A DNA stretch of 64,000 nucleotides from positions 2,170,001 to 2,234,000 of the forward strand of contig NZ_CP059556.1 in assembly GCF_024734405.1 (NCBI RefSeq). Reading direction: 5' to 3'. This DNA is from Saccharopolyspora gregorii. Its GTDB lineage: Bacteria; Actinomycetota; Actinomycetes; Mycobacteriales; Pseudonocardiaceae. Position numbers and translations under genes: made by a program. The notes beneath the pieces are model-generated. The model was given only the letters and a program-made list of their open reading frames with translations, did no database searches and was not told where the DNA came from. Shown piece after piece: positions 1 to 21,956 of the stretch (the first letter of the stretch is position 1; the number at the start of each line of letters is the position of its first letter).

Positions 1-156
1 CGCCAGGTTGTCCAAAGTGGACAGGATCGGGGCGAGCACGTCGTCGAGGCCGGCGGTGAACTGCTGCGCGAGGTGGTCGTCCGCGTACATCCCGGGCAGC
101 TGTTCCCCCATCGGGTAGCGGCTGCGCAGTCCGGGGATCCCCGCCCGCCGCGTCAC
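1..156 (-). CDS. eCIS/phage tail protein, P2 gpI-like (Afp12-like), partial
   Basis: Only the first 52 codons lie in the window; the gene runs off the left edge. The GTG start overlaps the stop of the J-like baseplate gene (GTGA), so it continues the same operon. The visible N-terminus reads GLRSRYPMGEQLPGMYADD, then QQFTAGLDDVLAPILSTLDN. This is the pattern of the TIGR02242 tail-protein domain: an LR..LP.-YAD opening followed by a helix ending LAPI..TLDNL. In known eCIS and P2-like tails the protein is a baseplate wedge component. The family assignment is recognition from a short stretch, and the rest of the protein is not visible. Confidence 0.8.
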   Translation of the reverse strand, partial: MTRRAGIPGLRSRYPMGEQLPGMYADDHLAQQFTAGLDDVLAPILSTLDNLA

Positions 157-2117
157 CTGGGCTCCGCGCCGTCGTGCGGGACGACCACGACCTGGTGCTG
201 GTGGGAGAACACGAGGGCGTGCGCGGGCAGGTCGATGCGGTCGGCCGGGGTGCCGCGCCTGCCGGTGATCGGGTCGGCGGGGAACAACCGCACCTCCTCG
301 ACGAGCCCGACGCCGTCGACGCGTTGCAGGACGGCGAAGACCTCGCCGACCTGCACGGGCCGGCCGAACGGCCAGCCGGTGCCGTCGGCGCCGCCGCGCA
401 ACGGGTTCAGGTGCGCGTACAGCGCGTCGAGGGCGTCGCGGTCGATCCGGCCGGTGTCGGCGCCGGTGGAGCGGAGCCGGGCCACCACGGTGATGCCCTG
501 GTAGAACGGCGGTTCCACCACGATCCGCGCCCCCAGCAGCCTGCGTTCGTCGAGCCGCGAGGCGATGGTCGCCAGCAGCTGCTCGGAGGGGATGAGCTGC
601 TCGAAGCGGATGCGATCACCGGTGTCGGCGACGGCGCCTGGCACGACGAGCAGCCGGGCCGCGCCGGGGTCCTGCTCGGCCGCGGCGGGCAGGCAGCGGA
701 TGCGGGCGGCGGCGGGTGCGGCTTGGCGGGCGATCTGCTCGTGGTCGGCGGCGGTGACGGCCCGTTCCTGCAGTTGCAGCTGGTGCGGGGCGCGGATCTT
801 CGCCTCGGCGATGGTCTCGCCGTCGACGCCGCCGATGGCGGCTTCCCGGTTCTCCACCTCGGAGATGTAGGGCTCGGAGCTGCGCAGCACGGAGATGGCG
901 CCGCGCGCGACGTTGCCGGCCCGGCCGCCTCCGGTGCGGTAGCGGGGGATGCGCAGCTGGGCGCCCTTCGCCGGGACGGCGCCGTAGTACCGCAGCGAAC
1001 CGTCGGGCAGCCGCACGGCCGGAGGGAAGCCGAACTCGCCGGTGGTGGGGTCGAGGGTGACGTGCCGGTCGGTGGGGCCGGAGCGGCCGAAGTGGTCGAC
1101 GACGGTCCAGTCCTCCCAGCCGTCCTCGGTGGAGACCTGGACGACGACGGGGTCGCCGTCGGTGAGCACCGGCGCGACGTCCGCGGTGAACCGCTGCCCG
1201 GGGACCCCGGCGGATTCGCCGAGGGGCACGTCGGTGTGCGCCTCGGCGTGCTCGACGCCGGTGGTGCCGCCGACGGTGGAGACCTCGGCGACGCGGACGG
1301 TGGGTGATTCGGAGTAGAACGGCTGGTCCGGCACGGGCGCGGTGACGCGGCAGCGCAACCACCCGGCGCGCACCCCGGCGACGGTGGAGGGCGTGTGCCC
1401 GGGCCCGATCTGCAGCAGCACCTCACCGGGCTTGTTGAGCCCGCCGGTGGTGTCCTCGAAAGCCTCGCACTCGGCCCAGCGGGTGCCGTCCCACGCCTCC
1501 CACACCAGCGGCGGCTGGCGCGGGTCGACGCCGATGCCTTCGACCCGGCTGTCGAGCTCGACGGCGATGACGCAGCGCGGCACGGCGCCGCTGAGCCCGA
1601 ACAGCATGGCGTCGCCGACGGCGGGTTCGGTCTGGAAGCAGGGCACGTCCTCGGCGGCGGCGAGGTCGGCGGTGCGGTCCTCGATGGTGCCGGTGGCGGA
1701 GATCGTGACGAGGGTGCGCAGTTCGCAGGGCACGATCGGCAGCTCGTGCTCGGTGGCGAACACGACTTCCCGGTCGGCTTCGGAGTGGGCGGTGGCGACC
1801 TCGGTGCCGCGCGGCAGCAGCACGGTGTCGGGTTGTGCGGTGGAGAGCCAGAAGGTCACGTCGCCGCGGGCGGCGGTGGGCGGGAACAGGCGCACGCCCA
1901 TCAGGTCCAGGAACGCGAGGTAGTTCTTCTCCGGCACCCGGTTGAGCCGGTAGACGAGCTGGTCGACCATGTGCGCGAAGGTCTCGATGAGCGTGACGCC
2001 CGGGTCGGAGACGTTGTGGTCGGTCCACTCGGGGGCGCGCTGCTGCACGTAGCGCTTCGCCTCGTCGACGAGCTGCTGGAAGCGCCGGTCGTCGAGGTTG
2101 GGCGTGGGGATCGCCAT
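153..2117 (-). CDS. Putative baseplate assembly protein (J/gp6-like, Afp11-like)
   Basis: A 654-residue protein matching the TIGR02243 baseplate assembly family in length and in its opening: MAIPTPNLDDRRFQQLVDEA, then PEWTDHNVSDPGVTLIE, then LNRVPEKNYLAFLDLMGVRL. In eCIS particles the J/gp6-like protein forms the baseplate wedge ring that joins spike, tube and sheath. The start overlaps the gp25 stop by one base (TGATG) and the next gene begins in its stop codon, so translation is coupled. The middle of the protein (about residues 200-430) is beta-rich and the C-terminal part carries the R-rich J-like domain. An ORF on the opposite strand over the same bases is a codon-bias shadow. Confidence 0.93.
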   Translation of the reverse strand: MAIPTPNLDDRRFQQLVDEAKRYVQQRAPEWTDHNVSDPGVTLIETFAHMVDQLVYRLNRVPEKNYLAFLDLMGVRLFPPTAARGDVTFWLSTAQPDTVLLPRGTEVATAHSEADREVVFATEHELPIVPCELRTLVTISATGTIEDRTADLAAAEDVPCFQTEPAVGDAMLFGLSGAVPRCVIAVELDSRVEGIGVDPRQPPLVWEAWDGTRWAECEAFEDTTGGLNKPGEVLLQIGPGHTPSTVAGVRAGWLRCRVTAPVPDQPFYSESPTVRVAEVSTVGGTTGVEHAEAHTDVPLGESAGVPGQRFTADVAPVLTDGDPVVVQVSTEDGWEDWTVVDHFGRSGPTDRHVTLDPTTGEFGFPPAVRLPDGSLRYYGAVPAKGAQLRIPRYRTGGGRAGNVARGAISVLRSSEPYISEVENREAAIGGVDGETIAEAKIRAPHQLQLQERAVTAADHEQIARQAAPAAARIRCLPAAAEQDPGAARLLVVPGAVADTGDRIRFEQLIPSEQLLATIASRLDERRLLGARIVVEPPFYQGITVVARLRSTGADTGRIDRDALDALYAHLNPLRGGADGTGWPFGRPVQVGEVFAVLQRVDGVGLVEEVRLFPADPITGRRGTPADRIDLPAHALVFSHQHQVVVVPHDGAEPR

Positions 2118-2539
2118 CAGGCCGCTCCTCCCGCCTCGGAGCCGCCGCCGTCGGGGATGGTGTAGAAGGGGAACACGAGGTTGCGGCGGTCGTTGGTGGA
2201 CCGCAGCACGTAGTGCACGTCGATGTAGAGCACGCCTTCCTCGTCGGGGTCCAGGGCGACGACGACGTCCTCGACCTCGATGCGCGGTTCCCAGCGCTGC
2301 AGCGCGGACCGCACCTCGTGGGCGATGCGCCCGGCGGTCGCGCCGTCGGTGGGGGAGAAGACGTAGTCGTGGACGCCGCAGCCGAACTCGGGCCGCATGG
2401 GGCGTTCGCCGGGTGCGGTGCCCAGGACGAGCCGGATGGCCTCCTCGATCTCCTGCTCGCGCCCGACGAGCCCGATGCCGCCGGTGGGGGTGACGCGAAG
2501 CGGGAACCCCCAGCCGCGGCCGATGAACCGCTCGCTCAC
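2117..2539 (-). CDS. gp25/GPW-like baseplate wedge protein (Afp9-like)
   Basis: A 140-residue protein with the hallmark gp25 signature: LVGREQEIEEAIRLVLGT, then PGERPMRPEFGCGVHDYVF. The conserved arginine/glutamate pair after PGER and the FGCG motif are what trigger sheath contraction contacts in the T4 gp25 family. Translation begins at a GTG that overlaps the PAAR stop (GTGA) and ends inside the ATG of the J-like gene, giving a tightly coupled baseplate block. Length and motif placement are normal for the family. Confidence 0.94.
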   Translation of the reverse strand: MSERFIGRGWGFPLRVTPTGGIGLVGREQEIEEAIRLVLGTAPGERPMRPEFGCGVHDYVFSPTDGATAGRIAHEVRSALQRWEPRIEVEDVVVALDPDEEGVLYIDVHYVLRSTNDRRNLVFPFYTIPDGGGSEAGGAA

Positions 2540-2850
2540 ATCGGGCCCCCGATCAGGACGTTGAACGCGCCGATCTGGACCTGGGAGCCGCAGCTGCTCT
2601 TGTCGTTCATCTTCGCGGCGGGCAACCCGCTGATCAGCACGACGCCGCCGCGCGGTGGGCTGGGCACCAGGACGTTCGCGGGCCCGAGCAGCGCGTCCGG
2701 TCCCTTGGGGCAGGCGACGATGCTGCCGGTGACCGCGGCCGGTTTCCCGCCGATGAGCACGGTCGCGACCCTGGCGGCGGCGGGTCCCGGCGGAGCACCG
2801 ACCACGCCCCCGTGGTTGGTGGCGTCGCCGATCCGGGCGGCTGGTGGCAT
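2536..2850 (-). CDS. PAAR-domain spike-tip protein (Afp10-like)
   Basis: A 104-residue protein rich in glycine with paired short beta repeats: AARIGDATNHGG, then IGGKPAAVTGS, then LISGLPAAKMNDKSSCG and FNVLIGGP. This matches PAAR proteins, which sharpen the VgrG trimer tip in T6SS and eCIS. The start is the ATG at 2850, just after a GAGGAGA ribosome site; a longer open frame upstream (to 3468) is antisense-type arginine-rich filler inside the VgrG gene and is rejected. It sits between gp25 and VgrG, the usual eCIS position. No effector extension is fused to it. Confidence 0.93.
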   Translation of the reverse strand: MPPAARIGDATNHGGVVGAPPGPAAARVATVLIGGKPAAVTGSIVACPKGPDALLGPANVLVPSPPRGGVVLISGLPAAKMNDKSSCGSQVQIGAFNVLIGGPM

Positions 2851-2876
2851 CGGGGTCTCCTCTCGCTGTGGGTGGG

Positions 2877-4697
2877 TCAGTTGATCCGGACGAGCATGGC
2901 GTGCAGGGCGGCGGTGCCGCCGCCGTCGATGTCGGCGGACAGGGAGCCCTTCAGCGAGGCGTTCTGCAGGGCGCTGATCCGGGCGTCGGCGGTGGCGTCG
3001 AGGTTGATGTTGCGGCCCTTGACCTTGACCTCGCCCGTGCCCGCGTCGAGGGTGATCCCCCCGTCGTCCAACGTGATCGAGCTGAGCGAGCCGCGGCCGC
3101 CGGGCCGCTTCACCGCGATCTCGATGGTCCTGGCCTTCTCGTCGAGCCGGACCTCCAGCCGGTCGTCGCCGCTGGCGATCCGCACTCCCGGCGGCCCCTT
3201 CTTGCTGTCGATCAGTTCGAGCCGGTGCCCGTCGCGGGAGACCAGCGAGCGCCGGGCGACCTTGCCGCGTTCGATCAGCGGGATGTCGTGCTCGGACGGC
3301 TTGTCCTTGCCGTTGTAGAGCCCGCCGAGCACGTACGGCTTGTCCAGGCAGCCCTGTTCGAAGGCGACGAGGACTTCGTCGTTCACGCTCGGGCTGATGA
3401 CGCCGCCGCCCTGCCCGCCGAGCTGCACGCTGCGCGCCCAGTCGGAGACGTACTTGGCGTCGAGCCACGGGAAGGTGAGCTTCACCCAGCCGCGGCCGCC
3501 GCCGGCGGGTTCGCTGACGTCGGTGACGATCGCGTTGACCACGCCCGGGATGCGCGGCCCCCGGTCGGGCGCGTTGGCGCCGGTGGTGAGCCCGGCCAGC
3601 GACCGGTCCGGGCTGGTGCTGACCTGCACGGTGGTGCGGTAGCCGAGGCCCGGTTCGATGACGTGGTGCACCGCGGTGGCGGTGTACTTGCCGGAGAACT
3701 TGTCGCCCGCGTTGCCGAGCGCGACCGGCACGCCCGCGCGCAGCTTCGGATCGCCCTCGACGACCGCTTCGACCTCGCCGAGCCCGGCGCTGGTGGCGGC
3801 CGACAGCGACTCCGCCAGCGCGTCGGCTTCGGCTCGGGTGCCGTAGGCCGTGTCGGTGACGGTGGTGCTGCTCTTCTTCCCGAAGTCCTTGATCGCCTCG
3901 GCCGGGGTCATGCCGGGAACGGTGGTCCCGCTCCGGGTGACGGTCTGCTCGGCGACGACGGGTTTCTTCGCCTGCACGTCCCAGCCGCGGACTTCGACCT
4001 TGCCGACCTGGTCGGTGGAGGTGAGCACGGCGCGCAGCGCCATCAGGTTCCGCCCGTACTCCAGCACGAACGGGCTCTTCGCCGCGGAGGTGCTGGGCGC
4101 GGGCGCCGAGGCGGCGGGGGCGAGCGGGGCGAAGTCGAGCTTGCCGGTCTCGTCGACGCGGACCGTGACGCCGTGCTCCTGGGCGAGGTTCTGCAGGAAG
4201 TCCCAGTCGGAGATGTTGGGCTGGGCCAGCTGGGTGTAGGTGATCGGTTTGGCCCGCACCTCCCCGACCGTCAGCCCGGCTGCGGTGGCGACCTTCTTCA
4301 CGATGGCGTCGGCCTTCATGTTCTTGTACGCCACCACCTTCCGGCCGCGCAACAGCCGGTGCGCCTTGTTCATCGCGCGCACCACGGTGAACGAGCCGGT
4401 GCCGTCGGAGTCCAGTTCCAGCGCGGTGACCTCGCCGGCGAACAGCTTCTCCGGCGTCCCGCCGCCCGCGGTGGACATGGACACGGTCAGCGCGGTGCCG
4501 ATGGTGATGGGGGTGGCGGTGAGCAGTTCGTGGTCCGGGTCCCGGAAGGTGAGGGTCGCCGCGTCGGGCAGGCCGACGTTCTCATCGACGACGCAGGACA
4601 CCAGCTGCTCCTGCCAGGGCGGGGGCAGCTTGCCGGGGCACTTGATGATCGGATCGGCGGCGAACGACCTGCCGTCCTGCTCTGCGGAACTTCCCAT
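2877..4697 (-). CDS. VgrG-like central spike protein (gp27/gp5-like, Afp8-like)
   Basis: A 606-residue spike protein. The N-terminal two thirds is the gp27-like hub, with LTFRDPDHELL near residue 50 and an ISDWDFLQNLAQEHG motif near residue 165. It is followed by a gp5-type OB fold (KLTFPWLDAKYVSDWARS, then PSVNDEVLVAFEQG, then YVLGGLYNGKD) and a C-terminal repeated beta-helix needle (LDDGGITLDAGTGEVKVKG). The ATG at 4697 overlaps the LysM stop (TGATG); the longer frame to 5267 is a shadow. The trimer would carry the PAAR tip encoded just downstream. An alanine/serine-rich linker near residues 225-245 is not obviously conserved. Confidence 0.93.
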   Translation of the reverse strand: MGSSAEQDGRSFAADPIIKCPGKLPPPWQEQLVSCVVDENVGLPDAATLTFRDPDHELLTATPITIGTALTVSMSTAGGGTPEKLFAGEVTALELDSDGTGSFTVVRAMNKAHRLLRGRKVVAYKNMKADAIVKKVATAAGLTVGEVRAKPITYTQLAQPNISDWDFLQNLAQEHGVTVRVDETGKLDFAPLAPAASAPAPSTSAAKSPFVLEYGRNLMALRAVLTSTDQVGKVEVRGWDVQAKKPVVAEQTVTRSGTTVPGMTPAEAIKDFGKKSSTTVTDTAYGTRAEADALAESLSAATSAGLGEVEAVVEGDPKLRAGVPVALGNAGDKFSGKYTATAVHHVIEPGLGYRTTVQVSTSPDRSLAGLTTGANAPDRGPRIPGVVNAIVTDVSEPAGGGRGWVKLTFPWLDAKYVSDWARSVQLGGQGGGVISPSVNDEVLVAFEQGCLDKPYVLGGLYNGKDKPSEHDIPLIERGKVARRSLVSRDGHRLELIDSKKGPPGVRIASGDDRLEVRLDEKARTIEIAVKRPGGRGSLSSITLDDGGITLDAGTGEVKVKGRNINLDATADARISALQNASLKGSLSADIDGGGTAALHAMLVRIN

Positions 4698-5416
4698 CAC
4701 GCACCGTCCTGTTCGGACTCGTCGAGGGCGGGGACGAGCAGTTCGCTGCCCGGCACCAGGACCATCGGGTCGTCGATCCCGTTGGCTTCGGCCACGTAGC
4801 GCCACGCCGTCGCGTCGCCGTACTCGTTCCAGGCGATCTGCGGGAGGCTGTCCCCGGCGATGACCCGGTGGGTGCGGCGCGCGGAGTCCGAGCCGGAGGT
4901 GGAGTTCTGCCCGGGGGTGTCGACGCTGGCTTCCTCGATGCCCAGCGAGCAGGTGGCGCGCAGCGGTTTGCCGTCGACGTCGAACAGCGAGTAGTCCACC
5001 GAGAAGCTGTTGAGCACCCCGTCGAACGAGGTGGTGCGGGCGGTGCCCCACTCGAACCGGACCCACGGGCTGGCCGGGGTCTTGGCAGCGAGGCTCTTCG
5101 GGGTGGGCACGCAGGCCACCATGAGGTCTTCGACCTTCTTCTCCACCGAGTCGTCGTGCTTCTCGGTGGCGTCGAGGAACACCTCCAGCTGCAGCGAGCG
5201 GGGCCCGCTGCCGACGAACTCGGGCAGCGCCGATTCGGCGGCCATCCGGGCCGGTTTGCGCCGCCACTCGGTGCTCTTGGTCAGCGCGAGCTTGTTCGGG
5301 TTGAACTGGAGCTTGACGCGCTTGAGCGTCGCCCCGGGTTTCGCGCCGACCTTGGCGGGCGGTTCCATGATGAGGATTTCGGCGCGGGCGAGGTTCTTGG
5401 CGCTGGTGACGGCCAT
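4697..5416 (-). CDS. eCIS hub/tube-baseplate adaptor with C-terminal LysM (Afp7-like)
   Basis: A 239-residue protein. The N-terminal region (LKRVKLQFNPNKLALTKSTEW, about residues 31-51) is the conserved gp53-like opening of eCIS/phage adaptor proteins. The C-terminal ~55 residues form a LysM module (THRVIAGDSLPQIAWNEYGD, then WRYVAEANGIDDPMVLVPG). In related particles the protein joins the first tube ring to the spike; LysM can bind glycan, but in this family it is structural. It lies 13 bases upstream of nothing but the tube gene's stop side and overlaps the VgrG start, keeping the order tube-adaptor-spike seen in Afp/PVC clusters. Confidence 0.92.
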   Translation of the reverse strand: MAVTSAKNLARAEILIMEPPAKVGAKPGATLKRVKLQFNPNKLALTKSTEWRRKPARMAAESALPEFVGSGPRSLQLEVFLDATEKHDDSVEKKVEDLMVACVPTPKSLAAKTPASPWVRFEWGTARTTSFDGVLNSFSVDYSLFDVDGKPLRATCSLGIEEASVDTPGQNSTSGSDSARRTHRVIAGDSLPQIAWNEYGDATAWRYVAEANGIDDPMVLVPGSELLVPALDESEQDGA

Positions 5417-5429
5417 CGGGTTCCTCCTC

Positions 5430-5858
5430 TCAGGACGGTTGCAGGCCTTCGTGGGCGATCTCCAGGGTTTCGATCGCCGCCTGGGAGTTCGACGGGTCGA
5501 AGGACGGGCCCTGCCAGCTGACGGGCACGATGCCGATGACCTGCCAGCGGGCGATCGGCGTCAGGTTCGGCTTCAGCGCCACGATCTCGCCGTTCTTGCG
5601 CTCGGCCTTGCGCATCGTGTCCGACAGCCACTTCGCGATCTTGGTGGTGTCCCCGGTGACGGGGCGGGTGAGCGTGATGTTGGTCCAGGTGATGCGGGTG
5701 GGCAGCTGCCAGGAGAACGAGTTGTTGCCGCCTTCGGCGAACTGCTCCACCTCGACCTGCGCGCCGAGCCCGGAACAGGTGTGGAACCGGCCGAGGTCGT
5801 TGCCCGCGATGGCCAGCCGGAAGAACACGCTGCTGGCGAAGATGTCCGTCGACGACAT
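5430..5858 (-). CDS. gp19-type tail tube protein, second copy (Afp5/Afp1b-like)
   Basis: A 142-residue T4 gp19-family tube protein: SVFFRLAIAGNDLGRFHTCSG, then EQFAEGGNNSFSWQLPTR and a C-terminal WQGPSFDP...ETLEIAHEGL strand. The start is the ATG at 5858 with an AGAGGAG ribosome site seven bases upstream; an in-frame TTG at 5876 is less likely. It differs clearly from the other tube gene (9335-9775), as expected for a terminal tube ring that contacts the baseplate adaptor encoded immediately downstream. Confidence 0.92.
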   Translation of the reverse strand: MSSTDIFASSVFFRLAIAGNDLGRFHTCSGLGAQVEVEQFAEGGNNSFSWQLPTRITWTNITLTRPVTGDTTKIAKWLSDTMRKAERKNGEIVALKPNLTPIARWQVIGIVPVSWQGPSFDPSNSQAAIETLEIAHEGLQPS

Positions 5859-5872
5859 CGGTGTGCTCCTCT

Positions 5873-8710
5873 TCAACGCCTGCGGTCGTAGGTGCGGCCG
5901 AACCGTTCGCGGCCGTGGCGCAGCTCGGTGCGCAGCAGCCGTCCGACGGGTTCGATGAGGCGGCGGGCGAGTTCCTCGATGTCCTGCTCGCCGCCGGTGC
6001 CGGTGGTGGGTTCGGGGTCGGCGCTCTCCTGGTGCTGCTTGGGCACGACGGTGACGGGGACACCGGGCGGGACGCCGGGGACCTGCGGGGCGGGCTCGTC
6101 CTGCGTCGGCGCCGACCGCGCGGCAGGCGGCGATTCCGGGGCGGTGCGGCGCTGCACCGGCCGGGCTGCGCGCATCGGCGGCCGTGCACCCGGGCCGTCC
6201 GCCGCGGAGCCGGGTGGGGCGGGCGCCGGTTCGGCCGCCGCGGAGTCCGGCGGGGGCGGTTCGGCCGCCACCGCGGGGAGGGCCGCCGGGGTGGCCGAAC
6301 GCTGCACCGGTGCCGGGTCGGCCGGTCGGTCCCCGGGCTCGCGGCGCGTCCAGCGCAGCGGCGCCACGGCCCGGTGCTCGGCCGGTGGCGCCGTCGCGTT
6401 CGGCCGCGGCTGGTCCAGCCGGGTTCGCGTGGTCAGCGGCCGCGTGGTGAGCAGCGGGCGGGCGCGCTGCACCGGGGCGGAGAGGTGCGTCGGGTCGTGG
6501 TGCGGCCGGAGGGCCAGGTCGGGTTCGTCCGGCGAGTCCGGCCGCGCGCGCTGGACGGAACGCGTACCGGTGGAGACCTCGTGCGGGCCGGCGAGCGGCG
6601 TCTCCGGTGCGTCCGCGCCGCTCGGTGCGGTGAGCCGCTGCACCGGGGTGCCGTGCGGTGCCGCCGCTTCCGGGGCGGTGGTGCTCGACGAACGCCGCAC
6701 CGGGGTGGCCGCTCGGTGCGGTGCGGTGGCGGGGCCGGACGACTGCTGCGAGGCAGGACCGGGCGAGTGCCGCGTGGCGGAGATCGGCGGTTGCCGTGCG
6801 CCGGAGCTGCTCGGGGTAGCCGGATTCCGCTGTGCGGTGGGCAGTTCGGCGCTGGGCGAGTGCCCCGGCGCCCCGGCGGGATGCGCGGGGGTGCCGCTCG
6901 CCGAGCGCTGGATCGTCGTGTCGCCGAGCAGGGGTGCGGTGCCGTGGTCCGCGCCGCCGTGCGGCGGTGCTCCGGCGGCGTCCTGGATCCGGCTGCGCTG
7001 GACCGGAGTCGCCGGGCCGGTGCCTGCGGGCTCGGAGCTCGAACCGGCGAGCGGCGTGGCGACCGGATCCGCCGGTGCGGGGTCGTCCGGCGTCGTCGCC
7101 CGCGGTTCGGTCCGCGTGCTCGGGGTGCGCTGGACCTGCGGGGCGGCGTCGCCGAGCAGCGGCGCGGCCTCCGCCGCACCGCCGGGGACGACCGGCCCGG
7201 GTGTGGGTGGGGTGCCGCCGGGACGCAGCGGGGTCGCCGACTCCGGCAGCCGACCGAGCGGTTCGCCGAGGCCACCGCGGGAGTTCGGCGTGCTGTGCCG
7301 CACTTCGGGGTTCGAGGTGGGCGGGCGCTTCCGGCCGCGCCCGGCCCGGGAAGGGCGGTCGGGCTGCTGCTCCGGCGCCGGTTCCGCGGCGCGCTGCACC
7401 AGTGGCGGTGGTTCGGGGGAGCCCGTCGACTCGTGGTGCAGCGGCACCGCTCCGGAGGGCATCCGCTGCACCGGGCCGCCCAGACCGGACTGCTCGGGAG
7501 ATCGGTCCGCGCCCAACGTGGGGCGGCTGCCCGGCGGTCCGCCCGGTGCGGTCGATCCGGTCCCGGCCGTGCTGGGTGCGGTGCCGGAGTCCGCCGGTGT
7601 ACCAGGGCTGCTCGGGGCGGTCGGCCGAGGCGCGTCGGACCGCTCCGGTGGCGCGTCGGCGTCCGCGCGGCGCTGCAGCACGAGATCCACGTCCGGCCCC
7701 GGCGGTGCGGCGTCCGCCTGCCCCGCGTCCGTGCCCGGCGCGGTGATCGCGGGCAGCCGGCGCGGGGTGGCGCGGGTGATCGGTCGTGCCCTGGTCAGCG
7801 GCGGGGCGAGCCTGCGCAGGGCGACCCGCTGCACCGCGGCCGAGCCGGGGGAACCGCTGTCGGTGTCTCCGCTCGAAGCGGTCGAACCCGCGCCGGACGA
7901 CCGCTCACCGGACGAGCTCGTACCGCCCGAGGTCGTACTGCCCGAGGTCGTGCCGGGCGCGGCCGCGCTGGAGGATGCCGTGCCGGACGAGCTCGGCGTG
8001 CTCGACGTGGCTGCCGTGCGCTGCGAACCGGCGCGTCCGGACGGCCCGCTCCCGGACGAACCGGCCGCGCCCGCAGCCCTCGCCGAGCCCGAAGAACTCG
8101 CCGAGCCCGAAGAACCCGCCGCGCCCGAAGAACTCGCCGAGTCCGAAGAACCCGCCGCGCCGGACGCACCGGACACCACGCCCGCGCGGGACGACGAACC
8201 GGCCGGACGCGCCGAACCACCCGAGTGGCTGTCCGCTCCCGCCGTCCCGCCCCCGGACGCCGCTCCGCGCGCAGCACCCCGGCCACGCCCGAGGATCCGG
8301 CCCGCCGACCGCTGCACGGCCCGCCGCCCCGAATGCGGAACCGGCGCGTCCGAGTCCGAAGTGGACTCCGCTTCCGGCCGCACCCAGGTGAACTCCTCGC
8401 CGTCCGACCGCTGCACCGGTCGCCCTCCCGCGCGCGCCAGCCCGCGCATCACGCCGCTCGGCGCTGCACCGGAGAGCCGGTGCCCGAGCCCGCCGCTGGT
8501 GACCCCGTGGTCCCGGAACGACGCGACGGACGCGCGGAAGCGCTCGGGCCGGATCACCTCGCCCGAGTCGCGCTGCAGCACGCCGCGCATCGGCGCCGTG
8601 CGACGCCAGCCACCGTCCGGTTCCGATGCGGGGGCGGCCGGTGCGGGTGCGGTCTCCGGCTCCGGGGCGTCCCGGCCGAAGAAGCGGCGCAGCGGGTTCC
8701 AGCGGCTCAT
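5873..8710 (-). CDS. Disordered VQR-repeat protein of the eCIS operon (945 aa)
   Basis: I recognise the type (large low-complexity protein in actinobacterial eCIS operons) but know no function. It has a short basic N-terminus (MSRWNPLRRFFGRD), a conserved-looking stretch VIRPERFRASVASFRDHG near residue 55, a Ser/Ala/Gly block at about 150-300, then Pro/Ala/Thr-rich sequence. It closes with an amphipathic helix (DIEELARRLIEPVGRLLRTE). The tripeptide VQR occurs 12 times and close variants (LQR, IQR, AQR, VRR) five more, at irregular spacing. No signal peptide or membrane segment is seen. The ATG at 8710 was chosen because sequence upstream in this frame overlaps the DUF6760 gene. Its place next to tube and adaptor genes suggests a structural ruler, cargo or scaffold. 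Confidence 0.8.
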   Translation of the reverse strand: MSRWNPLRRFFGRDAPEPETAPAPAAPASEPDGGWRRTAPMRGVLQRDSGEVIRPERFRASVASFRDHGVTSGGLGHRLSGAAPSGVMRGLARAGGRPVQRSDGEEFTWVRPEAESTSDSDAPVPHSGRRAVQRSAGRILGRGRGAARGAASGGGTAGADSHSGGSARPAGSSSRAGVVSGASGAAGSSDSASSSGAAGSSGSASSSGSARAAGAAGSSGSGPSGRAGSQRTAATSSTPSSSGTASSSAAAPGTTSGSTTSGGTSSSGERSSGAGSTASSGDTDSGSPGSAAVQRVALRRLAPPLTRARPITRATPRRLPAITAPGTDAGQADAAPPGPDVDLVLQRRADADAPPERSDAPRPTAPSSPGTPADSGTAPSTAGTGSTAPGGPPGSRPTLGADRSPEQSGLGGPVQRMPSGAVPLHHESTGSPEPPPLVQRAAEPAPEQQPDRPSRAGRGRKRPPTSNPEVRHSTPNSRGGLGEPLGRLPESATPLRPGGTPPTPGPVVPGGAAEAAPLLGDAAPQVQRTPSTRTEPRATTPDDPAPADPVATPLAGSSSEPAGTGPATPVQRSRIQDAAGAPPHGGADHGTAPLLGDTTIQRSASGTPAHPAGAPGHSPSAELPTAQRNPATPSSSGARQPPISATRHSPGPASQQSSGPATAPHRAATPVRRSSSTTAPEAAAPHGTPVQRLTAPSGADAPETPLAGPHEVSTGTRSVQRARPDSPDEPDLALRPHHDPTHLSAPVQRARPLLTTRPLTTRTRLDQPRPNATAPPAEHRAVAPLRWTRREPGDRPADPAPVQRSATPAALPAVAAEPPPPDSAAAEPAPAPPGSAADGPGARPPMRAARPVQRRTAPESPPAARSAPTQDEPAPQVPGVPPGVPVTVVPKQHQESADPEPTTGTGGEQDIEELARRLIEPVGRLLRTELRHGRERFGRTYDRRR
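8091..8162. repeat. Two tandem 36-bp repeats inside the VQR-repeat gene
   Basis: Two adjacent copies of a 36-bp unit beginning gaagaactcgccgag, with two mismatches between them, encode the Ser/Ala/Gly block of the VQR protein on the minus strand. A partial third copy precedes them. Such slippage repeats make the gene length variable between strains. Confidence 0.8.
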
Positions 8711-8715
8711 CCGGC

Positions 8716-8874
8716 TCACCTGCTCTCGTTCACCCGCGTGTTGATGCGGGCGATCTCCCGCACCCAGCGCCTGCGCTCCAGGTGGTCCAGGTCCAAGAGC
8801 TCCTCGCGGGTCCAGTGGAAGTGGTAGGCGATGTACGCGACCTCCTCGTGCAGCCGGTCGGCCGCGTACGTCAC
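8716..8874 (-). CDS. DUF6760-like small eCIS protein (52 aa)
   Basis: A 52-residue gene that is easy to miss because of its size. It begins with GTG overlapping the stop of the upstream assembly gene (GTGA) and ends five bases before the VQR-protein ATG. The product reads TYAADRLHEEVAYIAYHFHW, then TREELLDLDHLERRRWVREI. This is the typical short acidic/basic helical protein encoded between tail-assembly and tube genes in actinobacterial eCIS clusters (DUF6760). Its position resembles the tail assembly chaperone pairs of phages, which is a possible but unproven role. Confidence 0.85.
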   Translation of the reverse strand: MTYAADRLHEEVAYIAYHFHWTREELLDLDHLERRRWVREIARINTRVNESR

Positions 8875-9338
8875 GATTCCCCCAGGCCGTCACCGGCCAG
8901 GTCGATCTCGAACCCCGAACCGCAGGACGGGCAGGTGACCCCGGCGCGGGTGTGCCCCTCGCTGTTGATGCGGCGGTAGAAGTCCTGCAGGAACGCGATG
9001 TCGGTGGCGTACATGTTCTCCACCAGGCCCGAGTGCACGTCCGTGATGTCGCCGAGCCGCGTGATCACCTGGCTCAGCAGCACCACGCTCAGGTACGCCG
9101 GGTTCTCCTTGACCCGCAGGTCGATCTGCGGGCGCAGCTCGTCGCGCGCCGTCGCCAGCCGCATCCGGCCGTGCCGGTGCAGCGTGCCGTCGGTGTGCCG
9201 GTAGCCGCGCGGCAGCTCGAACTCGAACTCGTCGTGCGCCGCCTGCGGTGCGGGGCGTTCCGCGGTGGCCGTGGCGGTGTCGGGCTTGCGGGCTCTGAAC
9301 TGGTCCAGGTCGTCGAGCGAGTTGACCCGCCGCCTCAT
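8871..9338 (-). CDS. eCIS tail assembly protein with CxxC zinc-ribbon-like C-terminus
   Basis: A 155-residue protein: a variable first 35 residues, then FEFELPRGYRHTDGTLHRHG, MRLATARDELRP, and a helical region NPAYLSVVLLSQVITRLGD. It ends in a short CPSCGSGFE motif that could be half of a metal site. The ATG start overlaps the stop of the main tube gene (ATGA), so it is translationally coupled to the tube. It resembles the phage tail assembly proteins found at this point in eCIS and phage operons. The longer frame (to 9878) is a shadow across the tube gene. Confidence 0.85.
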   Translation of the reverse strand: MRRRVNSLDDLDQFRARKPDTATATAERPAPQAAHDEFEFELPRGYRHTDGTLHRHGRMRLATARDELRPQIDLRVKENPAYLSVVLLSQVITRLGDITDVHSGLVENMYATDIAFLQDFYRRINSEGHTRAGVTCPSCGSGFEIDLAGDGLGES

Positions 9339-9775
9339 TCGACCTCGATCCGCTCGAAGGTGATGGTGGCCTTCTCGGTCGCCGCGTTGGACTCGCCCGC
9401 GTTGAGGCCGGGGCCTTCCCACTTGCTCACCCACGCGTCGTAGAGCTGGATCCGCCGCACGACGGTCCCGTTCGGTTCCATCACCTCGATGGTCAGGTTC
9501 TCCCGCGCGTCCTCGACCTCGCCGTCGGACACCGTCTTCTTGAGCCACTTGGTGAACTCGGGGCTCTCGGTCATGCCGCGGGTGATCGTCACCTCGCCGC
9601 CCTTGTGCCCACCGGGCTGCTTCTTGTTCATCATCTTGCCGGTGTCGGTGACCTGCTGGGTCTCGACCACGTCCTGCTCGACGGTCAGGCCGCTGACCTC
9701 TTTGATCGACTCGACGGTGACCCCGCCGAGCTGCACACCGAACCGGTGGACGGAAAGGCTGTCGCCTTCTGCCAT
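9335..9775 (-). CDS. gp19-type main tail tube protein (Afp1-like)
   Basis: A 146-residue T4 gp19-family protein: SLSVHRFGVQLGGVTVESIK, then GLTVEQDVVETQQVTD, KKQPGGHKGGEVTITRGMTE, and FTKWLKKT. Spacing of the long central beta hairpin motif PGGHKGGEVT is characteristic of eCIS inner-tube subunits. A good ribosome site (AAGGGG) precedes the ATG. The gene follows the sheath, with a 121-bp gap holding a small hairpin but no gene. The sheath-tube order and the expected high dosage fit the major tube subunit. Confidence 0.94.
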   Translation of the reverse strand: MAEGDSLSVHRFGVQLGGVTVESIKEVSGLTVEQDVVETQQVTDTGKMMNKKQPGGHKGGEVTITRGMTESPEFTKWLKKTVSDGEVEDARENLTIEVMEPNGTVVRRIQLYDAWVSKWEGPGLNAGESNAATEKATITFERIEVE

Positions 9776-9896: not shown

Positions 9897-11417
9897 TCAT
9901 TCGCTCAGGAGGCTGGAGCTGTCGGAGAACTGGGAGAGGCGGAAGATGACGAACTCGGCGGGCTTCACCGGGGCCACGCCGATCTCGCAGACGACCTGGC
10001 CGAGGTCGATGGATTCCTGCGGGTTGTTCTCCCGGTCGCACTTCACGTAGAAGGCCTCGGCGGGGGTGCGGCCGAACAGGGCGCCGTCCCGCCAGGTCTG
10101 GGTGAGGAACGCGCCGATGTTGCGCCGGATGCTGGACCACAGCCGGTCGTCGTTCGGCTCGAACACCACCCACTGGGTGCCGAGCAGGATCGACTCCTCC
10201 AGGTAGTTGAACAGCCGCCGCACGTTCAGGTAGCGCCACGCCGGGTCGGAGGACAGGGTGCGGGCGCCCCAGATGCGGATGCCGCGGCCGGCGAACGCGC
10301 GCACGCAGTTCACCCCGACCGGGTTGAGCAGGTCCTGCTCGCCCTTGCTGAGCGTGGTCTCCAGGTCGACGGCACCGCGGATCACCTCGTTCGCGGGCGC
10401 CTTGTGCACCCCGCGCTCGGTGTCGTTGCGCGCCCACACCCCGGCGATGTGCCCGCTCGGCGGCACCATCTTGTTCCGGCCGGAGGACGGGTCGAACACC
10501 TTGATCCACGGGTAGTACAGCGCCGCGTAGTTCGAGTCGTAGCCGGTTTCGTCCATCCGCCAGGTCCGCACCTGCTGCGCGTTCAGCCCGGGCGGGGCGT
10601 CGAGCAGGGCGACGCGGTCACCGAGCTGCTCGCAGTGCGAGATCGCCGCCAGCTGCACGGTCTTCACGCCTTCGGCGTCGATGAGGCCGCGCTGGTGGGC
10701 GCTCATCAGGTCGGGGACGGCGACGATGGTGATCTCGTCGATGGTCTCCAGGCCGCCGAAACCGGTGCGGGCGGCCAGATCGCCCACGTACTCCTGCGCG
10801 TCGACCTTCGCCGGGGTGGTGGCGCTGGGCGGCGTGCCGGGGACGGTGACGCTCTGGTTGTCGGGGCGAGCGAGGGCACCGCCGGACGGCTCGGTGACCT
10901 CGATGAGCTTCGAGTGCTCCTTGACCTGGTTCACCACGTAGCTCTTGACGTTCTTGCGGGTGGAGACGTCGTGGGTCTCGGCGACCTTGCCGCCTTGGCG
11001 CACCACCAGCTTGAACCGGTCGTCCGGCGGGTTCTCGCCGTCGGCGTCGGCGACCTCCACGGTCACGTCGGAGGTGGTCGCGGACAGCGCGGAGACCCGC
11101 AGCCCGCCCAGCTCCACCGGCTTCGGCGCGGGAGCGGCGGGTGCCGCGGCCTCGGACGGGCCGCCGATGCGCACCACGTAGGCGGAGCCGCCGCCGTTGG
11201 CGAAGTAGCCGTAGACGGCGTGCGCGAGGTACCCGTCGTCGAACCCGCCGAAGTTCTGCACGTACTGGTTCCAGTTCGTGACCAGCGTCGGCTGGTGGAA
11301 GGGCCCCTGCGGCGCGAAACCGACGAAGGCGGCCACCGCGGTCCCGACCCCTTCGATCGGCCTGGCCCCGCTCTGGACTTCCTCCACGTACACGCCAGGG
11401 GACAGGTACGACGGCAT
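9897..11417 (-). CDS. Contractile tail sheath protein (Afp2-4-like)
   Basis: A 506-residue sheath subunit. The N-terminus PSYLSPGVYVEEVQSGARPI and the C-terminal domain (VNCVRAFAGRGIRIWGARTL, NYLEESILLGTQWVVFEPND, LFGRTPAEAFYVKCDRENNP) are diagnostic of eCIS/phage sheaths. A variable insertion of about 150 residues (about 110-260) forms the outer domain. The ATG at 11417 has a consensus AAGGAG site; upstream in-frame codons to 11591 are ignored. It is the promoter-proximal gene of the leftward structural operon. There is only one sheath gene, as in Streptomyces-type clusters, whereas Afp has three. Confidence 0.96.
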   Translation of the reverse strand: MPSYLSPGVYVEEVQSGARPIEGVGTAVAAFVGFAPQGPFHQPTLVTNWNQYVQNFGGFDDGYLAHAVYGYFANGGGSAYVVRIGGPSEAAAPAAPAPKPVELGGLRVSALSATTSDVTVEVADADGENPPDDRFKLVVRQGGKVAETHDVSTRKNVKSYVVNQVKEHSKLIEVTEPSGGALARPDNQSVTVPGTPPSATTPAKVDAQEYVGDLAARTGFGGLETIDEITIVAVPDLMSAHQRGLIDAEGVKTVQLAAISHCEQLGDRVALLDAPPGLNAQQVRTWRMDETGYDSNYAALYYPWIKVFDPSSGRNKMVPPSGHIAGVWARNDTERGVHKAPANEVIRGAVDLETTLSKGEQDLLNPVGVNCVRAFAGRGIRIWGARTLSSDPAWRYLNVRRLFNYLEESILLGTQWVVFEPNDDRLWSSIRRNIGAFLTQTWRDGALFGRTPAEAFYVKCDRENNPQESIDLGQVVCEIGVAPVKPAEFVIFRLSQFSDSSSLLSE

Positions 11418-11521
11418 GCTCGCTCCTTCGTCTGCGGCGTTCGTGCACCCAGAGCTTTCGCCACCGCCCGCCCGCGCCACCATGTCCGCCCGACCTGCGC
11501 CGAGGGCAGCACCGCTGCCTT

Positions 11522-11571
11522 CCGGGGCAATCCCGCACTGCCTGCGCAGGCAGGAAGTGGGCGTTGCCCGG
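11522..11571. promoter_or_regulatory. Long imperfect palindrome between sheath and DUF4157 genes
   Basis: A 16-bp perfect palindrome (CTGCCTGCGCAGGCAG, 11538-11553) lies within a wider dyad whose outer arms are CCGGGGCAA (11522-11530) and TTGCCCGG (11564-11571). It sits in the 233-bp region between divergent genes, about 120 bp upstream of the sheath start and 80 bp upstream of the DUF4157 start. This placement suits an operator controlling both directions. No regulator has been matched to it. Confidence 0.5.
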
Positions 11572-11650
11572 AGCTCTGCCCCTTCGTGCATTCCCCGCCG
11601 GGCCGCGCTCCCGGTAGGTCTGGAGCCGTTGCCGTGTCCGAGGAGGGACC

Positions 11651-12214
11651 ATGCGGGACCGCGAGCAGCGCGACGCGGCGAAGTCCGAGGCGAGGCCCCA
11701 GCAAGCGGCGCGCACCCCCGACCACTCCGGGCCGGTCGAAGAGCTGCTGCACCTGCAGCGGACCCTCGGCAACGCCGCCGTCAGCCGGATGGTCCAGCGG
11801 CGGATGGCGCCTCCGGAGCCGGCACCGGAGCCGGTCTGGTCCGGGGAGGACGTGCTGAAGTCGGCCGGGAAGCCGATGGACGCGCCGGTGCGCCAGGAGA
11901 TGGAGACCCGGCTGGGCGCGGACTTCTCCGACGTGCGGCTGCACACCGGCGCCACCGCGCAGCGCTCGGCGTCCGAGATCGGCGCGCGGGCCTACACCTC
12001 CGGCAGCGACGTGGTGCTCGGCTCGGGCGCCTCCGACAAGCACACCCTCGCCCACGAGCTCACCCACGTCATCCAGCAGCGCTCCGGCCCCGTCGCGGGC
12101 ACCGACAACGGCAGCGGCCTCAAGATCTCCGACCCCTCCGACCACTTCGAGCGCGCGGCGGAGGAGAACGCCCACCGCGCGATGCGCATCCCCCTAGAAG
12201 ATCAGGACCCCTGA
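11651..12214 (+). CDS. DUF4157 protein, zinc-metallopeptidase-like eCIS accessory
   Basis: A 187-residue protein. Residues about 30-50 hold the conserved preamble LLHLQRTLGNAAVSRMVQRR. The DUF4157 core follows: METRLGADFSDVRLHTG, then SGSDVVLGSG and the zinc motif HELTHVIQQR (HExxH), with an EENAHRAM helix that could give the third ligand. DUF4157 is known to be strongly associated with eCIS loci, either as a stand-alone protein or as the leading part of toxins. Here there is no toxin domain behind it. The GAGGAGG site six bases before the ATG fixes the start. It is divergent from the sheath operon, and shares VQR-type motifs with the 945-aa protein. Confidence 0.9.
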   Translation: MRDREQRDAAKSEARPQQAARTPDHSGPVEELLHLQRTLGNAAVSRMVQRRMAPPEPAPEPVWSGEDVLKSAGKPMDAPVRQEMETRLGADFSDVRLHTGATAQRSASEIGARAYTSGSDVVLGSGASDKHTLAHELTHVIQQRSGPVAGTDNGSGLKISDPSDHFERAAEENAHRAMRIPLEDQDP

Positions 12215-21267: not shown

Positions 21268-21956
21268 AACGGGCCCCGCATCCGGCGGCGGCCCTGCGGG
21301 CGCGGCTTCGGCGAGGAGAACCCGTCGCCCTCGGCGGCGGTCCCGTCGTAGCGCAGGTGCCGCTGCTCGTCGGCGGGCCCCTCCGGGAACGACGCCCGGC
21401 CGCGCAGCGCCACGCCCTCCGTGACCGGCGGGCCGACCGGGCGCAGCGCGCCCGCCAGCGGCGCGGTCACCCGCAGCGGGATCGACGGTTTCAGCTCCCC
21501 GCCCAGCGCCGACCACACGTCCGTCGGCGACCGGTTCTCCGCCAGCTCCCCGCCCGTCTCCAACGACACCTCCAACCCGAGCTCGCCCAGCGAACCCGTG
21601 CGCCACCGCGGATCCAGCGCCTCGTACCGGATGAGGCCGCGCAGCGCCTGCGCCAGCAGCCGGTGCTCGTCCTGCGGACGGTTCGTCCACGCCGTCACCA
21701 GGTAGGACAGCTGGAACCAGCGCGGCGGGTCGAAGCGGCCGACGACCTCGCCGGACTCGTCGAACCGGTCCACCGCACCGGACCGGCGCAGCGCCGGCTC
21801 CTCCCGGAGGTCGTAGAGGAACACGTTCACCGTCGGGGCGTTGCGCTTCGCCGCCCAGTCCGTGGTGGGCGGGTCGAACGCCAGCTCCACCCCCGAACCG
21901 GGCAGGCCCTCCTCGGCCAGCAGCAACCGCAGGCCCTCGTCGACTTCGTGGATCAC
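21264..21956 (-). CDS. DUF4255 tube-terminator/cap protein (Pvc16/Afp16-like)
   Basis: A 230-residue protein with the DUF4255 signature: MIHEVDEGLRLLLAEEGLPG, then ELAFDPPTTDWAAKRNAPTV, NVFLYDLREEPALRR and RWFQLSYLVTAWTNRPQDEH. In Afp and PVC the family member caps the tube and sheath and sets their length. The C-terminal ~60 residues are basic and low-complexity. It overlaps the ATPase by GTGA, so the two are one transcriptional unit, with the propeller gene 82 bp upstream. Confidence 0.93.
   Translation of the reverse strand: MIHEVDEGLRLLLAEEGLPGSGVELAFDPPTTDWAAKRNAPTVNVFLYDLREEPALRRSGAVDRFDESGEVVGRFDPPRWFQLSYLVTAWTNRPQDEHRLLAQALRGLIRYEALDPRWRTGSLGELGLEVSLETGGELAENRSPTDVWSALGGELKPSIPLRVTAPLAGALRPVGPPVTEGVALRGRASFPEGPADEQRHLRYDGTAAEGDGFSSPKPRPQGRRRMRGPL

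What the first reader, a model, noticed from the sequence alone, without database searches (positions are those of the whole stretch)
5873..8710. 945-aa eCIS protein built around 12 exact VQR motifs (17 with variants)
The disordered protein between tube and DUF6760 genes carries VQR 12 times plus LQR (2), IQR, AQR and VRR, usually after Pro/Ala and before Ser/Ala/Arg. The repetition is too regular for chance in a Ser/Ala/Pro protein, yet spacing is irregular. It also has a basic head and a conserved-looking amphipathic tail helix. It could be a tape measure, a lumen cargo, or a polyprotein cut at VQR. I know of no described role.
Basis: partly seen in the sequence, partly recalled or inferred. 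Interest (0 to 1): 0.75.

Follow-up and report, generated by a model that had tools for sequence, protein, structure and literature searches.

The report
Disordered tape-measure candidate with VQR repeats
A long floppy protein in a bacterial injection machine sits where phages keep the protein that sets tail length, and it carries spaced three-letter VQR tags that cargo proteins of these machines also carry, which makes a missing ruler and a possible cargo-docking code testable.

Summary
In detail: minus strand 8710-5873, 945 aa, 12 VQR against 0.15 expected, 0 of 5000 shuffles. In 109 complete homologues VQR occurs 1153 times against 23.1 expected and is the most over-represented tripeptide in 98; spacing is more even than chance. 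The gene follows a tail assembly chaperone (PHROG_508 in 48 of 50) whose partner DUF6760 lies in the -1 frame behind slippery GGGGGAA in 116 of 116 pairs. In tailed phages that place belongs to the tape measure, which papers on Streptomyces eCIS report as absent. VQR itself looks like a docking tag: DUF4157 cargo-type proteins carry it (9.8x), structural proteins do not (0.27-0.96x), and DUF4157 proteins mostly lack it where tapes do. Against universality: only 17 of 36 assessable genomes found through the chaperone have a clearly VQR-rich tape, and six tapes carry a fused DUF4157 domain instead. Frameshifting, length control and VQR binding are untested; cleavage at VQR is not excluded. New variant of a known kind.

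The parts
5873..8710 (-). VQR-rich disordered protein, 945 aa (stop codon included in the range); tape-measure candidate
   Evidence: translation; motif statistics; no Pfam, NCBIfam or PHROG match
8426..8710 (-). conserved N-terminal stretch (about residues 1-95): basic aromatic head, then WDGGWR..P..VIQR...FR..LASW.DH...LGH....APAG (family consensus)
   Evidence: alignments of homologues; AlphaFold mean pLDDT 64, no compact fold
6149..8578 (-). Pro/Ala/Ser/Gly-rich linker with 12 VQR (starting at residues 99,132,293,414,438,526,570,690,719,747,802,852) and variants LQR 45 and 345, IQR 600, AQR 626, VRR 671
   Evidence: family statistics
5876..6010 (-). conserved C-terminal amphipathic helix (residues 901-945), ..DIEELARRLIEPVGRLLRTELRHGRERFGRTYDRRR
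   Evidence: helical moment; helix inferred, not modelled
8871..9335 (-). tail assembly chaperone (TAC), open frame of 154 aa with CPxC near its end
   Evidence: PHROG_508 E 3.6e-6, 48 of 50 homologues; Phage_TAC_7 weakly in 9 of 50, Gp41_Mu in 2 of 50, neither in the window's own copy; viral structures incl. Mu FS-gp41
8877..8883 (-). slippery heptamer GGGGGAA, 0-frame codons CTG GGG GAA TCG then stop
   Evidence: 116 of 116 pairs, same phase; extended set
8716..8877 (-). DUF6760 reading frame, -1 relative to the TAC; its GTG overlaps the TAC stop
   Evidence: PF20546 E 8.3e-17; frame
5430..5876 (-). second tube protein (gp19-like; CIS5 tube-adaptor match below that model's cut-off)
4697..5416 (-). 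CIS_tube/LysM protein
2877..5267 (-). spike/hub (Phage_GPD, Phage_base_V); true start probably inside this open frame
153..3468 (-). PAAR, gp25 and baseplate J genes
9335..9775 (-). first tube protein (gp19-like)
9897..11591 (-). sheath
11651..12214 (+). small eCIS_core (DUF4157) protein, 187 aa, with LQRTLGNAAVSRMVQRR before the core domain
   Evidence: PF13699 E 6.2e-28, sequence

Best explanation
The protein is most likely the tape measure of this eCIS lineage. It is held during assembly by the tail assembly chaperone and its -1 frameshifted DUF6760 extension, anchored at the hub by its C-terminal helix and at the far end by its conserved N-terminus, with the linker running along the tube lumen. 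The spaced VQR triplets are short docking tags on that linker. DUF4157 core-domain proteins carry the same tag next to the domain, so the tag probably marks proteins packed in the lumen by engaging one shared partner (the core domain itself, the tube wall or the chaperone). Shown here: motif enrichment and spacing, gene order, chaperone match, slippery-site conservation, tail-helix conservation, tag sharing and joint absence. Inferred: frameshifting, length control, anchoring, the identity of the partner.
For: Place: sheath - tube - TAC - DUF6760 - this gene - tube adaptor - hub; 39 of 40 fetched family matches lie in such a locus as far as the contigs reach. Heptamer codons GGG 116 of 116 and GAA 116 of 116, although GGG is 28% of Gly and GAA 16% of Glu codons elsewhere in the same genes. 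In an extended set of 143 chaperone loci 128 have GGGGGAA (123) or GGGGGGA (5) in one phase; none of the 128 has a stop in the -1 frame before the DUF6760 core; 9 of 128 have no ATG/GTG/TTG within nine codons after the slip. PRFect (PMC10885494, passages) reports GGGGGAA in all of about a thousand 'fivetwo' sites of annotated SEA-PHAGES frameshifts. Architecture as in diffocin, whose TMP has its C-terminal helices on the spike and N-termini at the collar (PMC10996793 passages). Streptomyces papers state that no typical tape gene is present although CIS-Sc particles are identical in length, 268 nm and 60 tube layers. Tag: VQR 1153/23.1 in 109 tapes; DUF4157 proteins 69/7.0 in 42 open frames; sheath, tubes, spike, adaptor, gp25, baseplate and chaperone 0.27-0.96x. 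DUF4157 proteins with the tag in their flanks: 1 of 11 in genomes with VQR-poor or fused tapes, 23 of 27 where tapes are VQR-rich.
Against: No profile match to any tape measure and no phage homologue by tblastn. Not helical coiled coil: 15.4% Pro. Length varies 542-1487 aa over the family, more than expected of a strict ruler. In the passages I saw, S. coelicolor particle mass spectrometry names sco4242, sco4256 and sco4251 among proteins of unknown function, not the gene that should be the tape; the cryo-EM model holds nine cluster proteins and no tape; tubes of a mutant lacking sco4256-4258 look mostly empty. At the same place, sister lineages have tapes without VQR, so VQR is not needed for a tape role. 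With the looser motif [VLI]QR, baseplate J (132 vs 82) and the CIS_tube protein (41 vs 26) are also 1.6x enriched, so only VQR proper separates the classes cleanly. Tag sharing and joint absence are not phylogenetically independent. The GGGGGAA run could also act as a Shine-Dalgarno sequence for DUF6760. 15 of 143 chaperone loci, mostly distant, have no heptamer.
Confidence: 0.6

Rival explanations
1. VQR is a processing site: a protease, perhaps the HExxH core domain, cuts after Arg, trimming the tape and releasing cargo from the core domain. A tape fused to the core domain would then have to avoid VQR.
For: phiQR sits about 40-100 residues after HExxH, at the border to the C-terminal part of DUF4157 proteins; VQR 1153 against VQK 2 (K is rare, 1.9 expected); tapes with a fused core domain lack VQR enrichment.
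Against: 10-20 cuts would destroy a ruler; four of the six fused-core tapes keep one phiQR behind the core domain; growth inhibition by the cargo Cgo1 is quoted as independent of the metalloprotease motif (PMC11297309 passage); I found no proteolysis data.
Confidence: 0.15
2. The protein is a lumen-filling scaffold or cargo carrier and something else sets length; VQR tags bind cargo.
For: VQR shared with DUF4157 proteins; free length drift of the linker; an aromatic residue within the first eight as in described eCIS loading signals, though residues 6-21 are net neutral rather than positive (sequence).
Against: The chaperone-adjacent place and two conserved ends are tape features; no other tape candidate seen among the genes scanned, though the scan was not complete and the cap gene was not seen either.
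Confidence: 0.18
3. VQR binds the tube wall or the chaperone, serving only assembly; cargo proteins copied the tag to enter the lumen.
For: Spacing more even than chance; VQR enriched only in proteins expected inside the tube, among those tested.
Against: Tapes with the same chaperone and heptamer but without VQR enrichment exist (L260, L261).
Confidence: 0.2
4. Low-complexity drift or composition artefact in a GC-rich gene.
For: Rapidly evolving Pro/Ala-rich linker.
Against: Shuffles, rank-1 tripeptide in 98 of 109, mixed codons, depletion of SQR, TQR and GQR.
Confidence: 0.01

Closest known systems
Phage and tailocin tape measure proteins (e.g. diffocin CD1366; Cis14/Afp14 of other eCIS)
   Same: Place behind the tail assembly chaperone and before the hub, long variable linker, conserved C-terminal amphipathic helix, conserved N-terminus
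   Different: Pro/Ala/Ser/Gly-rich, not helical; no profile similarity; studded with VQR; function untested
Tail assembly chaperones with -1 frameshift (P2 E/E+E', Mu gp41/FS-gp41; PHROG_508)
   Same: TAC match in 48 of 50, second product in the -1 frame, heptamer GGGGGAA as in annotated SEA-PHAGES frameshifts
   Different: The second part is DUF6760, with an overlapping start codon in most loci; frameshifting not shown by experiment
Tme of Streptomyces davawensis (DUF4157 + tape-related region + nuclease; PMC11126660, abstract and passages)
   Same: Links the core domain with a tape-like protein, as do the fused tapes in L138, L237, L238, L241, L242 and L246
   Different: The window protein has no core domain and no nuclease match
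Sle1/Sle2 of Streptomyces lividans (PMC13277306, abstract, section 5 and passages)
   Same: Small DUF4157 protein beside the sheath, tape-related partner
   Different: Sle1 is a coiled-coil effector encoded beside the sheath in reverse direction; deletion of sle1/2 left particles without apparent structural defects
eCIS core-domain (DUF4157) effectors
   Same: phiQR tags
   Different: No PF13699 match in the window protein

Membership tests
tape measure protein | gene directly behind tail assembly chaperone and before tube adaptor/hub | tested here: met
   39 of 40 fetched family matches in eCIS loci
tape measure protein | sets tail length | not testable with these tools
   needs mutants and microscopy
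tape measure protein | long helical/coiled-coil body (common, not universal) | tested here: not met
   composition 15.4% P, 11.7% G, 11.7% S; no structure prediction of the linker was run
tape measure protein | sequence similarity to known tape measures | tested here: not met
   Pfam, NCBIfam, PHROGs none; phages tblastn none
tape measure protein | conserved C-terminal helix for the hub | tested here: inconclusive
   conserved and amphipathic; contact not testable
tail assembly chaperone (neighbour 8871-9335) | profile match | tested here: met
   PHROG_508 48 of 50; Pfam TAC models only weakly and in few members
tail assembly chaperone (neighbour 8871-9335) | -1 frame second product with slippery site | tested here: met
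   by sequence only:
eCIS core-domain effector | PF13699 domain | tested here: not met
polyprotein cut at VQR | cleaved products | not testable with these tools
   no proteomics at hand

The most novel reading that the evidence does not exclude
VQR is a lumen address tag of actinobacterial eCIS: a disordered tape measure carries one tag about every 60 residues, cargo proteins carry the same tag on either side of their DUF4157 domain, and a shared partner lines both up along the tube. In lineages that fused the core domain into the tape, the string of tags is missing. Six Streptomyces tapes that I picked as close kin of S. coelicolor (kinship recalled) have 19-21 tags against 60 tube rings in S. 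coelicolor, which three tape chains would match one to one; this is numerology, since the 53 complete Streptomyces-scan tapes range from 1 to 22 with median 11.
Probability: 0.3. Interest if true: 0.88.

Novelty: new variant of a known kind. Interest (0 to 1): 0.73.

Why it matters
Three papers on Streptomyces eCIS report that no typical tape-measure gene is present (PMC10066040, PMC10286715, PMC12237407; passages and one section seen), and the last notes that all analysed particles had the same length. This work names a candidate in the same operon, with a chaperone pair and a slippery site that point to it, and makes the question testable in one deletion strain. If VQR is a loading tag, it would explain how cargo without a shared fold is packed and what the DUF4157 domain, whose function PMC11297309 calls elusive, stands beside. 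Searches for print: 'extracellular contractile injection' + VQR, 'contractile injection' + frameshift + 'tail assembly chaperone', SCO4249, DUF6760, 'contractile injection' + 'assembly chaperone' + 'tape measure' listed nothing that, by title, start of abstract or passage seen, describes this; most of the listed papers were not opened.

Tried and rejected
AlphaFold of the N-terminal stretch (33 rows) gave pLDDT 64 and no fold. PDB fold search of the chaperone found nothing at E<=0.001; the viral library gave four. PDB sequence search with the DUF4157 protein gave four matches, best E 0.044, none meaningful. tblastn of the chaperone (E up to 1) and of the whole protein (E up to 0.1) against phages: no match. 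DUF4157 proteins of eight records outside actinomycetes, picked by me from 82 plasmid records with a match, were tested for phiQR: clear enrichment in three (Kovacikia p 8e-7, Halobacterium p 2e-5, Deinococcus p 5e-4), weak in Acaryochloris (p 0.018) and Rhizobium (p 0.049), none in Nostoc (p 0.066), Oscillatoria and Paracoccus. A paper that names SCO4249 calls it PhoP, evidently another gene.

Considered and rejected: composition artefact; DNA repeat (mixed codons). Universal VQR in eCIS is rejected: of 41 genomes found by the chaperone, own genome included, 17 have a clearly VQR-rich tape (G398 from a partial frame), one (G475) has 2 VQR against 0.05 expected, 18 have a VQR-poor, fused, different or absent tape, and 5 are not assessable (G251, G380, G478 cut off by contig ends; G385 and G423 not fetched).

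Dropped or special rows: L073 (no eCIS gene); L042 and L050 truncated; five broken open frames (L169, L170, L196, L202, L212); L213 and L174 kept in the counts although 881 of 1069 and 23 of 1151 residues are masked. Of 42 family matches outside the own genome 40 were fetched (not G144, G150). Of ten genomes with a match to the fused tape of G294 (own included), stretches of seven others were fetched; L243 has no eCIS gene and was dropped; G501 and G553 were not fetched. In the flank count: L268 (G423) left out of the 1-of-11 because its tape was not seen (2 of 12 with it, p 8e-5); G380 is counted as VQR-poor on a partial tape of 273 aa; the 11 include four proteins from two genomes with fused tapes; L279, L292, L295 and L310 without HExxH left out; three hits without a locus not examined.
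Full report
What is there. The finding's coordinates are right and the gene is on the minus strand: 945 aa from ATG, no match in Pfam, NCBIfam or PHROGs. VQR occurs 12 times against 0.15 expected, with 0 of 5000 shuffles reaching 12. The cluster reads, in gene order: sheath, tube, a 154-aa frame, DUF6760, the VQR protein, a second tube protein, CIS_tube/LysM, spike, PAAR, gp25, baseplate J, Tail_P2_I, and a protein with zinc ribbons and a discoidin-like domain; a small DUF4157 protein stands divergently beside the sheath. The last two genes of the row lie left of the window (L003; Tail_P2_I just reaches into it).

The family. The N-terminal 113 residues found matches in 41 of 200 genomes of the window's family, own genome included. 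I fetched 40 of the 42 matches outside the own genome; 39 lie in eCIS loci with the same gene order as far as the contigs reach, one (L073) does not. Profiles of the two ends reached further into the class: the C-terminal profile matched in 43 of 296 genomes, many matches weak, the N-terminal one in 15 of 296; 20 stretches were taken, and a scan of named genomes with the Streptomyces C-terminal alignment gave 149 relatives, of which the best 80 were kept. In all 140 loci were studied (window, 39, 20, 80).

Motif statistics. 109 proteins are complete by my criterion. VQR 1153 against 23.1, IQR 139 against 3.5, LQR 81 against 14.4, AQR 99 against 57.6; SQR, TQR and GQR are under-represented. VQR is the most over-represented tripeptide in 98 of 109, and 105 of 109 have p<1e-3. 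The four exceptions are L213 (mostly masked), L064 (nine IQR instead), L121 and L135 (2 VQR each). Motifs run along the whole length, median spacing 62 residues, more even than random in 68 of 101 proteins at the 5% level and just so in the window protein (4.3%).

The chaperone pair. The 154-aa neighbour matches PHROG_508 'tail assembly chaperone' in 48 of 50 homologues scanned. Pfam's own chaperone models match weakly and seldom (Phage_TAC_7 9 of 50, best E 0.0033; Gp41_Mu 2 of 50), less often than zinc-ribbon models (31 of 50), and not in the window's copy. Its AlphaFold model (124 residues, pLDDT 80) resembles viral predicted structures, among them Mu FS-gp41 at E 0.018 and others named tail or tape measure chaperone at E 0.04-0.07; the best hits (E 3e-6 to 1.5e-4) are baseplate, hub-assembly and uncharacterised proteins. 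In 116 of 116 pairs DUF6760 is in the -1 frame and GGGGGAA stands 10 (114) or 7 (2) bases before the chaperone's stop. The codons are GGG 116 of 116 and GAA 116 of 116, while elsewhere in the same genes GGG is 312 of 1106 Gly and GAA 184 of 1146 Glu codons. With sister lineages added, 143 chaperone loci were looked at: 128 have GGGGGAA (123) or GGGGGGA (5) in one phase, none of these has a stop in the -1 frame before the DUF6760 core, and in 9 there is no ATG, GTG or TTG within nine codons after the slip. Seven of these nine have Leu (CTG in the contexts seen) at the usual start position, which could start translation weakly; L059 and L245 do not. The 15 loci without the heptamer are L138, L237, L246, L248, L249 and L250-L259. 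A Shine-Dalgarno role is a partial alternative. PRFect (passages seen) reports GGGGGAA for all of about a thousand 'fivetwo' motifs in annotated, not experimentally tested, SEA-PHAGES frameshifts. That such a pair lies between the major tail protein and the tape measure in tailed phages is stated in PMC3091744 (passage).

Why a tape. A tape measure needs a far-end contact, a linker and a hub contact. This family has a conserved N-terminal stretch, total lengths of 542-1487 aa, and a C-terminal helix with invariant residues and a high helical moment in 101 of 109. In diffocin the C-terminal helices sit on the spike and the N-termini at the collar (PMC10996793, passages). PMC10066040 (passages), PMC10286715 (passage) and PMC12237407 (section 6 read) state that a typical tape measure gene is absent from Streptomyces clusters, the last with particles identical in length at 268 nm and 60 tube layers. 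By order SCO4249 should be this gene and SCO4251 the chaperone; I infer that from SCO4248 being the slpT2 homologue and SCO4253 the sheath, and did not see the sequences. Against: PMC10020575 names sco4242, sco4256 and sco4251, not SCO4249, as detected proteins of unknown function (passage), the cryo-EM model contains nine cluster proteins and no tape, and luminal density depends mostly on sco4256-4258. A few disordered chains might be invisible, but this is an excuse, not evidence.

What VQR may do. Among eCIS proteins located in these loci, sheath, tubes, spike, CIS_tube, gp25, baseplate J and chaperone have VQR at 0.27-0.96 of expectation; DUF4157 proteins have 69 against 7.0 (42 open frames). 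With [VLI]QR the picture is less clean: baseplate J 132 against 82, CIS_tube 41 against 26, DUF4157 128 against 15. In DUF4157 proteins the tag lies in two bands, about 60-120 residues before HExxH and 40-100 after it, the second at the border to the C-terminal part. In seven loci of another family the tape-like gene, with the same C-terminal helix, has 0 or 1 VQR; five of the seven carry PF13699. Six of the seven were found with the fused tape of the first as query, so this share is biased. A further fused case is L246 in the window's own family. No HExxH core was found in the 109 tapes. A further lineage (L135, L260, L261) has neither a fused core nor many VQR, and its DUF4157 proteins next to the eCIS genes lack the tag. 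Counted over DUF4157 proteins, 1 of 11 carry a flank tag where the tape is VQR-poor or fused and 23 of 27 where it is VQR-rich (Fisher p 2e-5). Relatedness makes the p value too small; the lineages behind it are few. Four of the six fused tapes keep one phiQR behind the core domain, so the tag is not simply banned near it.

How far it reaches. Starting from the chaperone instead of the tape, 41 of 296 genomes were found, own included. Seventeen have a clearly VQR-rich tape, G475 a weak case, 18 have a VQR-poor, fused, different or absent tape, five could not be judged. Seven of eight distant loci (L250-L252, L254-L258) still have a frame of 972-1556 aa near this place that ends in a charged, helix-like stretch. 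So a disordered tape may be general in these systems and VQR a property of a large clade.

Conclusion. I hold at about 0.6 the joint reading 'tape measure with lumen docking tags'; the tape part alone I would put near 0.75. Membership in a tape-measure family by homology is not shown; it has the place and shape of one. The most useful single experiment is the gene deletion with length measurement.

Noticed in passing
G000:C1:2373449-2373709 (+), locus L002: A second gp25-like gene about 200 kb from the window's own (E 6.9e-17), so the genome may hold another contractile system or prophage.
   Followed up: no
window 19306-21690 (-): AAA ATPase with a winged-helix domain (794 aa) on the strand of the structural genes, about 7 kb from the DUF4157 gene, possibly the eCIS ATPase; best NCBIfam match is far below its cut-off.
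   Followed up: no
L003:16238-17824 (-): Behind the baseplate genes, where Streptomyces has CisA: a protein with zinc ribbons, a Pro-rich linker, a hydrophobic stretch and an NADase-type glycan-binding (discoidin-like) domain.
   Followed up: no
window 8871-8950 (-): The chaperone ends in a CPxC zinc-ribbon-like stretch just before the slippery site; weak zinc-ribbon matches in 31 of 50 homologues.
   Followed up: no
L057 and L071 (genome G110), L125 and L126 (genome G433): Two different eCIS loci in one genome, with tapes of very different length (993 and 569 aa; 542 and 1396 aa).
   Followed up: no
L244 (genome G233): Chaperone, heptamer and DUF6760 present, but a frame ending like the LysM protein opens 720 bases behind the chaperone's stop, leaving no room for a long tape.
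   Followed up: no
L250-L252, L254-L258: Distant chaperones without the heptamer; in seven of the eight a frame of 972-1556 aa ending in a charged helix-like stretch such as ..ELADLVLDRIEGRVRGELERRG, with 0-2 VQR, follows.
   Followed up: partly
L222, L226: DUF4157 proteins of a haloarchaeon and a cyanobacterium also carry phiQR tags beside the core domain.
   Followed up: partly
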